A stretch of 64,000 nucleotides of DNA from Rhodobacterales bacterium HKCCE2091 (GTDB lineage: Bacteria > Pseudomonadota > Alphaproteobacteria > Rhodobacterales > Rhodobacteraceae). The translations under genes and the position numbers were made by a program. Positions 8,909-15,123 of the stretch are shown here, in pieces (positions within the stretch are counted from its first letter, which is position 1; each line of letters opens with the position of its first letter). A model generated the notes under the pieces. The model saw only the letters and a list, made by a program, of their open reading frames with translations, did not search any database and had not been told where the DNA came from. Location: assembly GCA_015689685.1 (NCBI GenBank), contig WVSL01000020.1, forward strand, positions 1 to 64,000, written 5' to 3'.

Positions 8909-9220
8909 TCATCCCAGGGTGACGGCGGTGCCGGATGCACTCACCATCAGCATGTTGTTGATGACCTCGTAATCGAGATCGACCCCGACCACGGCGTTAC
9001 CGCCGAGCGACCGGGCATGGTCCTCCATCTCGCGCAGGGCCGTGGTGCGGGCCTGACCGAGCGATTTCTCGTAGGCGCCGGAGCGGCCGCCGATGATGTC
9101 CGTGATCCCGGCGAAGATGTCGCGGAACACGTTCGCGCCGAGGATCGCCTCGCCGCAGACGACGCCATGATAGGCGGTGATCCTCTGGCCTTCGACGGTC
9201 GGTGTGGTCGTGACGATCAT
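8909..9220 (-). CDS. UPF0145 (YbjQ-like) protein
   Basis: 103 residues matching the small UPF0145/YbjQ family: [12 protein letters not shown] at the start, [20 protein letters not shown] in the middle and [13 protein letters not shown] near the end. The family forms ring oligomers and has been annotated as putative heavy-metal binding, without a proven function. It is coupled on both sides: its ATG overlaps the FkbM gene's stop (ATGA) and its stop overlaps an optional sufC start (ATGA). It is therefore an integral part of the operon. Confidence 0.88.
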
Positions 9221-10110
9221 CGCAGTTCTCCTGTCAGTTCGGGGGCGGCGCGCTGGTGGCTGCGGAACCGGGCGATGTAGCGGCCCGGAAGGTCGGCGTC
9301 CGCCCTGCCCCGCGCCACCAGCCGGTCGACGCAGTGCAGCGCCAGGTCGGGGCTGTCGAACATCGCGTCGGCGGCAAGCGCGAGATAGGCGAGCCCGTCA
9401 TCGTCCAACGCGCCGAGGTCGCCGTCGCGGATGTAGACCGCGTCGCCGTCCAGAAGCTGGCTCGTCAGCCGCGGGCGCACGACCTCCGCCTCGTGGTCGT
9501 GGGGCATCATCACCGACTTCGTGAACAGGAGCTTGTGCAGCTTGAACCCCTGCCCGCGCAGTTCCGCGTCCAGCTCGCCCCACAGCGCCTCGCCCTCGTA
9601 CATGCGGTGGAACCGGACCTCGGTCACGACCGCGACCGCACGGGCCAGCCGGTCCCGCCCGCCGCGCAGCACGTCGATCTCGCCGCCCTGCAGGTCCATC
9701 TTCAGCACGTCGACCGGCGGCAGGCCGTCCACCGCGTCCAGCGGCACGGTGTCGAGCGGCATTTCCTCGACGCCCCGCGCGGCCCACTTCTCCTTGCCAA
9801 TCTGCCAAAGCGCCGCCGCATCGAGCGGGCGGAGCGACGTGAACCCCGCGACCGGGTGGACCCGCAGCGTCGCCGGGCCGCCCGCACCTATGGCGACGGG
9901 AAAGTAGGTCTCGCGCGGGCCGGGGGCCAGCTTCGCGAACTCCGCCGGGTTGGGCTCGAACCCGTAGACCTCGGCGGCGCCGTCGGCCAGCAGCCCGGCA
10001 TAGGGCGGCACCGACAGCGGGCTCGCGCCCACGTCGCAGATCCGCATCGCCCGCGACGGGCGAAGCCCGGCGGTCAGGACGGCGCGGCGGCGGTCGGCGA
10101 AGTCACCCAT
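9217..10110 (-). CDS. FkbM-family SAM methyltransferase
   Basis: 297 residues. SAM-binding motif I appears as CDVGASPLS near residue 25, EVYGFEPNP is motif II, and [19 protein letters not shown] (about 130-150) is the FkbM-family signature DxK-D-(Q/E)G-E. FkbM enzymes O-methylate sugars or natural products; the acceptor here is unknown. The ATG lies 8 bases inside the preceding small membrane gene. Its place in the middle of a suf operon has no obvious biochemical reason. Confidence 0.85.
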
Positions 10111-10681: not shown

Positions 10682-12217
<1,536 letters not shown>

Positions 12218-12231
12218 GCGCGCTCCCCTGC

Positions 12232-13392
12232 TCAGGCCGGACCCGCGCGGCGCGCCCGGTGCTTGTCGTGGGCGCGGGCCCAGGCCTCCGCGAAGGCCTC
12301 GATCCCGTCCCTGTCGGTGCCGGGGCCCAGCGACACGCGGATCGCGCTCGCCGCATCGGCCTCGGAATGTCTCATGGCGGTCAGCACCGCCGATGCCCGC
12401 ACCTTTCCAGAGGAACAGGCAGACCCGGCCGAGATCGCGAAGCCGGCAAGGTCCATCTGCATCACCTGGGTCTCTCCCTTCCAGCCCGGCGTCAGCAGGC
12501 AGGAGGTGTTGGGAAGGCGGGGCGATTCCTTCCCGACAAAAATAGTCATCTCGGCCCGGTCTTCCAGCGTTTTTTCTAGAACGTTTCTAAGTTCGGCCAC
12601 GCGGTCCCAGGTTCCGTCGGCCAGGTCGCGCGCCGCGGCCGCCGCGGCGGCGCCGAAACCGGCGATCCCGATCACGTTCTCGGTGCCGGACCGGCGGCCC
12701 ATTTCCTGCCCGCCGCCGCGGATCATCGCGGGGATGTCGAAGCCGCGCCGGACCACCAGCGCGCCGATACCCTTGGGCCCGCCGATCTTGTGCGCGGACA
12801 CCAGCGCCATGTCGGCCCGGCTCCGCTCGAAGCTCCACGGCACCTTACCCACGGCCTGCACCGCGTCGGTCACGAGAACCGGGCGCGGCACCCGGCCGTC
12901 GAGCGCGCCGGCGAAGGCGGCCACGTCCTGCAGCACGCCGGTCTCGCTGTTGGCGGCCTGCACCGCGACGGCCACGGCGGCGTCGGCGGGAAACGTCATG
13001 GAGCGCAGCGCGTCCCGGTCGAGCCGCCCGTCGCGCCCCGGCGTCAGCAGGTGGCGCCCCCCGGCCCAGGCACGGATGCAGTCGTGCTCGATCTCCGAGG
13101 CGACGATAGCCCGCGCCGCGCCCGTCCCGCCCGCACCCTCCGGCCCGGCATAGGGCGCGAGCGCCAGCGCCGCCGCCTCGGTCGCGCCGGAGGTGAAGAT
13201 CACGTCGGCATCGCCCGCGTCGACCAGCACGGCGATCTCCGCCCGCGCCCGTTCCACCAGCGCCTTCGCCGCACGCCCCTCGGCATGAACGCTCGACGGG
13301 TTGCCGACGACGTCCATCGCCGACACCATCGCCGCGCGCGCCTCCGGCCGCAGCGGCGCGGTCGCGTTGTGATCGAGGTAGACCCGTTTCAT
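12232..13392 (-). CDS. cysteine desulfurase, group I (IscS/NifS-like)
   Basis: 386 residues. Starts [15 protein letters not shown], has the PLP lysine in [14 protein letters not shown] and the catalytic Cys loop in [12 protein letters not shown]. The long mobile loop with SACSSG marks group I, unlike SufS at the operon end. It supplies persulfide sulfur for cluster assembly. It is the first gene of the suf run after the 1.27-kb spacer downstream of iscR. Codons for residues around [10 protein letters not shown] and MTIFV (12530-12595) are AT-rich and rare (AGA, CTA, CTT, GTT, ATT, TTT) although the rest of the gene uses G/C third positions; see the palindrome at 12574-12590. Confidence 0.93.
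12574..12590. promoter_or_regulatory. candidate ICE-like (Irr box) palindrome inside a coding region
   Basis: Within the cysteine desulfurase gene the plus strand reads TTCTAGAACGTTTCTAA: arms TAGAA and TTCTA around a 3-base centre (12577-12589), overlapping a perfect 8-base palindrome TTCTAGAA. The iron control element bound by Irr in alphaproteobacteria has TTAGAA and TTCTAA half-sites of this kind. The site lies about 360 bases upstream of sufB. Function is inferred only from the pattern and the unusual codons it forces. Confidence 0.35.
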
Positions 13393-13972
13393 GTCCCCGG
13401 CCTCCGAACCGGCGCGCGGCGGGCGACCCTGCCCCGCGCGACACCGCTAAACCTTCCCGGCGGCATCATCCGCCCGCCCTGCATCCGCTCACCCTGCACG
13501 CGCGGACCGGTCCGGCCGCACTACCCGCGCCGCTCACCGCCCGCGCCCGTCTCGCGCCAGCCCCTGTCACGCCGCGGCGGAAGATGCAAACCCGTGCGAC
13601 CCGCGCAGCCCCGCAGCACCCTGTCCCGGCCCCGCCCCGCCGGGGCTTAAGCGGCCTCCGGGCGACAAAGCTTGCGAAACCCTTCGTCAAGTCCGCCCCG
13701 CCTCCCCGCCTTTCGGAGATCCCCAGTGAATTCCTCGAAACTCGTCCCGGCCCCGGACCCGCCACGCATGCTTCGTCCTCGGCCCCGGGACGGCCGACAC
13801 CATGCACCCGTAATCACGACGGCCCCGAAAACGCCCCGGAACAGGTCGAACGCACCTTTCAGCAGGGGACAACATCCGACCGCCGCTCCTGCCCCATCAG
13901 CCGAGCCGTTCCGGCACGATCCGGCCGGAACCTGACAGACACCTCCGCCACCCGCGCCCACCACGCCTTGCC

Positions 13973-14250
13973 GTCTCCGGCCCGCGACGCCCGGCCTTCC
14001 ACCACCACCCACCGACAGGTGCACACCGATCCGGCGTACGGTGACCTCGATCCGGCACCACACCGCACCGCCACCGATCCCATCCCTCCGTGTCTCCGGA
14101 TCCTGCGACGCCCGGCCTTCCACCACCGCACACCGACAGGTGCACACCGATCCGGCGCACCGTGTCCGCGATCCAGTACCACCCCGCACCGCCACCGTTC
14201 CCGTGCCTCCATGTCTCCGGATCCTGCGACGCCCGGCCTACCCTCCCGTC
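13973..14250. repeat. tandem repeat, about 120-bp unit, 2.3 copies
   Basis: Units begin with GTCTCCGG at 13973, 14092 and 14213 (periods 119 and 121). Each contains GCGACGCCCGGCCT, then CACCGACAGGTGCACACCGA, TCCGGCG and a CCGCACCGCCACCG block. Copies 1 and 2 are complete with perhaps 15-20 percent differences; copy 3 stops after about 30 bases. Not a CRISPR: units are adjacent, too few, and have no spacers. It could fold into extended RNA structure on either strand. Confidence 0.85.
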
Positions 14251-14534
14251 CCGTCAACGGACTCCAGCCGCTCCTGGCGCGGGCAGTTCAACACCCCGCC
14301 CCGGCCCCAGGCGAAGCGAGACCGCGCGACCAAGACGCGCCGCCCCGGCTTCTTCATCCCGAAAATATCCGGACGCGACCCCTCCGCACCGCGCCATCTC
14401 CGGTGCGGAAAAACCGCATCCCAGACAGCCTTGGCAGGAAAAGCCTCCCCTCCGGCACGACCCCCGACCCTGCACGAACGCACGGATTAACCATGCTGGC
14501 GCGGCCAGACCTGCGAAGGCGCGAAGACCGCGGG

Positions 14535-14589
14535 TCTACCCGGATTCTACCCCGGTTCTACCTGCATTCTACCCGCGTTCTACCCGCCC
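14535..14589. repeat. 11-bp tandem repeat, five copies
   Basis: TCTACC recurs at 14535, 14546, 14557, 14568 and 14579, exactly 11 bases apart, within a unit of the form TCTACCCGGAT with small variation in the last five bases. The array ends about 70 bases beyond the iscR stop codon. An 11-bp period is close to one DNA helical turn, so a protein reading TCTACC would see all copies on the same face. Function unknown. Confidence 0.85.
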
Positions 14590-14661
14590 GCCCGGACGCC
14601 GCACGAGGCCGCCCGGTTCGAAATCTGAAATGTGGTTAACCGCGTGTCGGCGGGGTCGCCC

Positions 14662-15123
14662 TCAGGCGTCGTCCACGACTTCGAACAGGTTGGGGACCGC
14701 CGGGCACGGGGTCAGTTCGTTCGTCACCACGTCCGAAAGCCGGGTCTGGTGCAGGAACACGTAGACATGGGCGGACAGCCCTTCCCACAGCCGGTTGGTC
14801 ATCGACTGCGCCCGGCTGCCCGACTGCCCGCCGGTGACGCCCGCGCCCTTGTGGAGCGCCGAGACGGTCTCGTCCACGGCGGCGAAGATGTCGACAACCC
14901 GGATCTCGGAGGCCGGGCGGGCGAGCCTGTAGCCCCCGCCGGGGCCGCGCACGCTTTCCACGAGGTCGGCGCGGCGGAGCTTCACGAAGAGCTGTTCGAG
15001 ATAGGGCAGCGAGATGTCCTGGCGGCGCGAGATTTCCGACAGGGTGGTCAGGCCGCCCGCCGACAGGATGGCGAGGTCGGCCATGGCGACCATCGCGTAG
15101 CGCCCCTTGGTGCTGAGTTTCAC
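14662..15123 (-). CDS. iscR: Rrf2-family regulator IscR lacking the classical cluster cysteines
   Basis: 153 residues from a GTG at 15123 with GGAGGGG six bases upstream. The Rrf2 winged helix is clear: MKLSTKGRYAMVAMADLA, SEISRRQDISLPYLEQLF, ESVRGPGGGYRLAR. E. coli IscR binds a [2Fe-2S] cluster through three Cys in the segment after about residue 90; here that segment (LHKGAGVTGGQSGSRAQSM) has none, and the whole protein has one Cys, C140. Rhodobacter IscR is known to have an unusual cluster coordination, so this fits the rhodobacteral type. It presumably represses suf in response to Fe-S status. The divergent gene is an alpha/beta hydrolase. Confidence 0.92.
   Translation of the reverse strand: MKLSTKGRYAMVAMADLAILSAGGLTTLSEISRRQDISLPYLEQLFVKLRRADLVESVRGPGGGYRLARPASEIRVVDIFAAVDETVSALHKGAGVTGGQSGSRAQSMTNRLWEGLSAHVYVFLHQTRLSDVVTNELTPCPAVPNLFEVVDDA

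What the first reader, a model, noticed from the sequence alone, without database searches (positions are those of the whole stretch)
12525..12600. AT-rich rare-codon patch with an ICE-like palindrome inside the suf-operon cysteine desulfurase
A gene with almost only G/C third positions suddenly uses CTT AGA AAC GTT CTA GAA AAA, then ACT ATT TTT. The patch forms TAGAA-CGT-TTCTA, similar to the Irr iron control element, and would be costly to keep unless the DNA or RNA itself is under selection. It could be an intragenic operator or a second promoter for sufB onward.
Basis: partly seen in the sequence, partly recalled or inferred. Interest (0 to 1): 0.6.

Follow-up and report, generated by a model that had tools for sequence, protein, structure and literature searches.

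The report
Irr-controlled promoter inside iscS gene
A short AT-rich stretch inside a bacterial cysteine desulfurase gene also serves as an iron-regulator binding site and promoter for the iron-sulfur assembly genes behind it; this promoter was already described in Rhodobacter sphaeroides, and here it is found conserved across most sampled genera of the family, fixing codons and even amino acids of the enzyme.

Summary
Inside iscS, between iscR and sufB on the minus strand, lies CTTAGAAACGTTCTAGA (12591..12575), 12 of 14 specified bases of the Irr box (ICE), followed by GACTATTTTTGTCGG (12547..12533). In R. sphaeroides, promoter P3 was mapped at this place, with an Irr box about 50 nt upstream of the start site and an IscR box, both bound in gel shifts (PMC6956336). 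Codon shuffling gives an equal ICE in 1 of 20,000 trials; only three sites this good occur in the 4.44-Mb genome, the others upstream of nfuA-like and katG-like genes. Of 116 genomes of the family (nearly all one per genus), 72 carry the box at the same codons with fixed spacing to the -10 region; AGA and CTA, 1-2% of Arg and Leu codons elsewhere, are used 72/72. The box even changed the protein: mostly LRD-x-LE in other families and box-less relatives, LRN-I-LE where the box exists. All 8 usable genomes without a detected irr lack the box. Irr binding and the start site in this organism are inferred by orthology. Verdict: real, functional, new member of a known kind.

The parts
12232..13392 (-). 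iscS-like cysteine desulfurase gene (386 aa) that carries the element
   Evidence: Pfam Aminotran_5 3.9e-45; best NCBIfam families are cysteine desulfurases, all below their cut-offs; iscR upstream and sufB downstream
12575..12591 (-). Irr box (ICE), CTTAGAAACGTTCTAGA, codons 268-273; centre at 12583
   Evidence: 12/14 match to TTTAGAANNNTTCTAAA; same codons in 72 of 116 family genomes; matches the Irr-bound P3 box TTAGAAATATTCTAGA of R. sphaeroides (PMC6956336)
12562..12567 (-). -35-like element CTGGAA (codons 276-277); its first base is at -34 if the P3 mapping is transferred
   Evidence: 17 nt upstream of the -10; relatives have CTTGAG, ATTGAG, CTGGAA or TTG here; R. sphaeroides P3 has TTG around -34. 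Not found by the strict consensus scan
12539..12544 (-). -10-like element TATTTT; A at 12543 would be position -10
   Evidence: ACTATTTTTGTCGG is one of the most conserved synonymous stretches; R. sphaeroides P3 has an A at -10
12533..12547 (-). IscR-box-like GACTATTTTTGTCGG, overlapping the -10 and predicted start site
   Evidence: 14/15 identical to the motif GACTATTTCTGTCGG assigned to IscR at P3, gel shift positive (PMC6956336); unique in window up to 3 mismatches
12530..12536 (-). predicted transcription start of the P3 orthologue (about 12533), giving a leader of about 316 nt to sufB
   Evidence: inference: transferred from the A at -10, TTG at about -34 and Irr box about 50 nt upstream in R. 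sphaeroides
10682..12217 (-). sufB, first gene served by the internal promoter
   Evidence: Pfam SUFBD_core 1.6e-80
14662..15123 (-). iscR, first gene of the operon and source of the second regulator
   Evidence: Rrf2 116.6 bits over cut-off; best NCBIfam model is IscR, 144 bits, below its strict cut-off of 207.55; orthologues lie next to iscS across the family

Best explanation
The patch is the orthologue of promoter P3 of the Rhodobacter sphaeroides isc-suf operon: an Irr operator (12575-12591) sits just upstream of a sigma-70-like core (CTGGAA, 17 nt, TATTTT) whose -10 and start region overlap an IscR site. RNA polymerase starting near 12533 transcribes sufB onward independently of the promoter before iscR. 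IscR bound over the -10/start region represses it; Irr bound next to the -35 damps its induction when iron is scarce. The A/T codons and the Asn-Ile (here Asn-Val) pair in the protein are kept because the DNA is read by these proteins. Shown here: sequence, conservation, fixed spacing, presence of irr and iscR, co-absence of box and irr. Shown elsewhere, in R. sphaeroides: start site, promoter activity, Irr and IscR binding. Inferred: binding, start site and regulation in this organism.
For: Known P3 with the same parts at the same place. Box at identical codons in 72/116 family genomes and 75/80 named loci, spacing 11 codons in 72/72. AGA at codon 269 accounts for 77 of 146 AGA codons in all aligned genes, CTA at 272 for 73 of 119. 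In the same genus, 17/17 synonymous codons identical in the patch against 127/202 outside, p = 0.0008. Protein change from RD-x-LE to RNILE goes with the box. irr present, over NCBIfam IrrA and Irr cut-offs. The only other ICE sites of this quality lie upstream of nfuA-like and katG-like genes. ICE+irr- 0, ICE-irr- 8, ICE+irr+ 72, ICE-irr+ 35, Fisher p = 0.0002, not corrected for ancestry.
Against: 35 genomes with irr lack the box, so it is dispensable; several of them keep the promoter core. The strict sigma-70 scan finds no promoter here, although R. sphaeroides promoters are poorly matched by consensus. The irr correlation has too few independent pairs to be significant on the tree. No expression or binding data exist for this organism.
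Confidence: 0.93

Rival explanations
1. The Irr box is functional but acts on read-through transcription from the promoter before iscR (a roadblock), and the downstream ACTATTTTTGTCGG is only an IscR site, with no start site here.
For: The box lies inside a transcribed gene; no consensus promoter is found by the scan.
Against: The orthologous stretch has a dRNA-seq start site and is the strongest sense promoter of the operon in reporter fusions. The box-to-core spacing is fixed at 11 codons, and some genomes keep the core without the box.
Confidence: 0.04
2. Rare-codon cluster kept for slow translation or co-translational folding of the enzyme.
For: AGA and CTA are rare Arg and Leu codons in these genes.
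Against: Common codons (GAA, AAT, ATT, GTC, GGG, AAA) are favoured too, the amino acids themselves change to fit a palindrome, box-less relatives use ordinary CGC and CTG, and the same palindrome occurs upstream of nfuA-like and katG-like genes.
Confidence: 0.01
3. AT-rich patch imported by recombination or drift, without function.
For: Local composition differs sharply from the gene.
Against: Same codons and spacing in 72 genomes of the family; the neighbouring codons vary while the patch does not.
Confidence: 0.01
4. RNA-level element (hairpin, terminator, riboswitch) in the iscS-sufB transcript.
For: The palindrome could pair with itself.
Against: The RNA folds no better than shuffles (z = +0.56) and the predicted fold does not use the palindrome; no terminator is found.
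Confidence: 0.01

Closest known systems
Promoter P3 within iscS of the Rhodobacter sphaeroides isc-suf operon (Nie, Remes, Klug 2019, PMC6956336)
   Same: Same gene, same operon order, Irr box about 50 nt upstream of the start, IscR-box-like motif 14/15 identical, A at -10, -35-like triplet at about -34
   Different: Irr box centre AACGTT here, AATATT there (TTAGAAATATTCTAGA); not tested experimentally here; in this genome iscR and iscS are separated by 1.27 kb
Irr box / iron control element (ICE) of Alphaproteobacteria, e.g. R. sphaeroides mbfA and ccpA (PMC3413700)
   Same: Interrupted palindrome TTAGAA-N3-TTCTAA next to a promoter, irr gene present
   Different: Lies inside a coding sequence, so it is double-coded; the mbfA and ccpA boxes lie in upstream regions

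Membership tests
Irr box (ICE) | Interrupted inverted repeat TTTAGAA-N3-TTCTAAA | tested here: met
   12/14 bases; one of three such sites in the genome, reversed control 0
Irr box (ICE) | Genome encodes Irr | tested here: met
   L119:1462-1893, NCBIfam IrrA 196.7 bits (cut-off 150) and Irr 195.3 bits (cut-off 170)
Irr box (ICE) | Bound by Irr and mediates an iron response | not testable with these tools
   Shown for the R. sphaeroides orthologue only
isc-suf P3 promoter | Located within iscS, upstream of sufB | tested here: met
   12533-12591 within 12232-13392; sufB at 10682-12217
isc-suf P3 promoter | Irr box about 50 nt upstream of the start, IscR-like box at the start | tested here: met
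   Centre 12583 to predicted start 12533 is 50 nt; GACTATTTTTGTCGG 14/15
isc-suf P3 promoter | Primary 5' end and promoter activity | not testable with these tools
   No transcript data for this organism
Consensus sigma-70 promoter | TTGACA/TATAAT hexamers by strict scan | tested here: not met
   0 found; R. [quoted passage not shown]

The most novel reading that the evidence does not exclude
A double-coded operator has been kept through most of a bacterial family inside an enzyme gene and has rewritten the enzyme's sequence (Arg-Asp-x-Leu-Glu to Arg-Asn-Ile-Leu-Glu), being lost repeatedly, including in all examined genomes in which irr was not found. The promoter itself is known from one species; its family-wide conservation, its imprint on the protein and its co-absence with irr were not found in the papers searched.
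Probability: 0.75. Interest if true: 0.5.

Novelty: new member of a known kind. Interest (0 to 1): 0.42.

Why it matters
It turns a promoter known from one species into a family-wide feature, and gives a clean natural case in which a regulatory protein's binding site dictates both codons and amino acids of an enzyme. The box-less and irr-less relatives offer ready-made controls for asking what this Irr input to Fe-S cluster assembly is worth. It also warns that codon optimisation or recoding of iscS in these bacteria would destroy a promoter.

Tried and rejected
RNA hairpin (fold z = +0.56) and terminator: rejected. Imported patch: rejected by conservation at fixed codons. Rare codons for translation speed: rejected, since common codons and amino acids are constrained too. 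Presence outside the family: the compound pattern is found in 2 of 385 genomes drawn from the class, both of this family, and 25 iscS homologues from other families score 4-6 of 14 at this place, so the element looks confined to this family. Phylogenetic test of irr/box co-absence: where box and irr both differ the direction is always the same, but there are too few independent pairs for significance. Rodionov 2006 could not be read (not held).

Full report
WHAT IS THERE. The region is an isc-suf operon on the minus strand: iscR (14662-15123), an iscS-like cysteine desulfurase gene (12232-13392), sufB (10682-12217), with sufC and sufD further on. The iscS gene has GC3 of 88.9%, yet codons 267-274 are GAA CTT AGA AAC GTT CTA GAA AAA and 283-285 are ACT ATT TTT. 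Within-gene synonymous shuffling gives as dense an A/T-ending run in 0.015% of trials. The run contains CTTAGAAACGTTCTAGA, 12 of 14 specified bases of the ICE pattern TTTAGAANNNTTCTAAA. Shuffles reach that score in 1 of 20,000, the 64-kb window has no other site with up to 3 mismatches, and the 4.44-Mb genome has only three places with up to 2 mismatches, with none for the reversed control.

WHERE THE OTHER TWO SITES LIE. One is about 58 bp before the start codon of an nfuA-type Fe-S scaffold gene (Nfu_N and NifU domains) and the other about 40 bp before the start codon of a katG-type peroxidase gene, divergent from a LysR-type regulator gene. All three sites thus fall at Fe-S or oxidative-stress genes, as one would expect of Irr targets. 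The genome encodes Irr (L119:1462-1893, over both NCBIfam Irr cut-offs), divergent from a fabA-like gene (naming by inspection), and a separate Fur-type protein (L118).

THE LITERATURE MATCH. In R. sphaeroides, dRNA-seq and reporter fusions place promoter P3 inside iscS; it starts transcripts spanning the suf genes and was the strongest sense promoter (PMC6956336). The authors name an Irr box TTAGAAATATTCTAGA about 50 nt upstream of the start and an IscR-like motif GACTATTTCTGTCGG around it, and show gel shifts for both. The window has TTAGAAACGTTCTAGA and GACTATTTTTGTCGG in the same order. If the A of TATTTT (12543) is taken as -10, as in R. sphaeroides, then +1 is 12533, the Irr-box centre (12583) is 50 nt upstream, and CTG (12567-12565) starts at -34, where R. 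sphaeroides has TTG. These positions are inference by orthology.

Genomes drawn evenly over the genera of the family, with the DNA of 116 usable genes aligned by protein. 72 carry the box (11 or more of 14) at exactly codons 268-273; of 80 further named loci (Ruegeria, Leisingera, Phaeobacter, Roseobacter, Roseovarius and others) 75 do. Box to core spacing is 11 codons in 72 of 72. Among box-bearing genes AGA is used 72/72 and CTA 72/72, although these make up 1.7% of Arg and 1.1% of Leu codons in the rest of the same genes. That count is conditioned on the box; without any conditioning, codon 269 holds 77 of all 146 AGA codons and codon 272 holds 73 of all 119 CTA codons in the 116 genes. Codons 272, 283 and 269 have the highest rare-codon surprisal of all 336 scored columns, and 283, 269, 272, 268, 267 and 271 the six highest A/T-third-base z scores. 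Against the one other genome of the genus, 17 of 17 shared synonymous codons are identical in the patch, 127 of 202 elsewhere (p = 0.0008).

IMPRINT ON THE PROTEIN. Box-bearing genes encode L-R-N-(I/V)-L-E (Asn270 in 64 of 72); box-less genes of the family mostly encode L-R-D-x-L-E (Asp270 in 34 of 44, Asn in 8). 25 homologues from other families of the class have scores of 4-6 of 14 and mostly L-R-D-x-(L/M/I)-E. So the operator appears to be an innovation of this family that changed the enzyme to fit the DNA site. In the class-wide search the compound pattern occurred only in 2 genomes, both of this family.

LOSSES AND irr. The label changes about 24 times on a quick tree built without the patch columns. 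Ten genomes of the sample have no Irr match; the 8 with a usable aligned iscS all lack the box, and none of the 72 box-bearing genomes lacks irr (Fisher p = 0.0002). One of the 8 (L192, 10 of 14) looks like a decayed box: ATTAGAAACATTTTGGA. This is not corrected for ancestry; tree-based pairs are too few to be significant, and some of these genomes are incomplete. Many box-less genomes keep ACTATTTTTGTCGG (16 of 44 match it at 12 or more of 14), which suggests that the promoter core outlives the Irr input. iscR was found in 116 of 120 genomes.

HOW IT MOST LIKELY WORKS. Inferred from R. sphaeroides: IscR bound over the -10/start region represses P3; Irr bound at about -42 to -58 reduces induction in low iron (in the irr mutant P3 activity was 2-fold higher in iron depletion than in repletion, and suf transcript levels were higher). 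An internal promoter allows sufB and the genes after it to be expressed above iscR and iscS.

A LOCAL PECULIARITY. In this genome iscR and iscS are about 1.27 kb apart; the median of 195 loci is 58 bp, the next largest gap 591, and the other genome of the genus has 46 bp. The spacer holds a 121-bp tandem repeat. If it hinders read-through from the promoter before iscR, the internal promoter would matter more here; this was not tested.

VERDICT. It is an orthologue of a described promoter, so a new member of a known kind; the family-wide conservation and the effect on the protein are, as far as the searched open-access papers show, not described.

Noticed in passing
window 13393-14661: A 1.27-kb C-rich spacer separates iscR from iscS; the median gap in 195 relatives is 58 bp and the other genome of the genus has 46 bp. 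It holds a 121-bp tandem repeat (13981-14222 and a partial third copy).
   Followed up: partly
window about 14535-14590: A stretch with repeated TTCTACCCG-like units matches 20 other places in the genome at 82-93% identity over 39-58 bp: a dispersed short repeat family of unknown nature.
   Followed up: no
window 9217-10110: An FkbM-domain methyltransferase gene sits between sufB and sufC; ten of the fetched relatives' loci have a similar protein near their suf genes.
   Followed up: partly
L115:1501-1517 and L117:1501-1517: The other two best ICE sites of this genome lie upstream of an nfuA-like and a katG-like gene, likely further Irr targets.
   Followed up: partly
   Followed up: no
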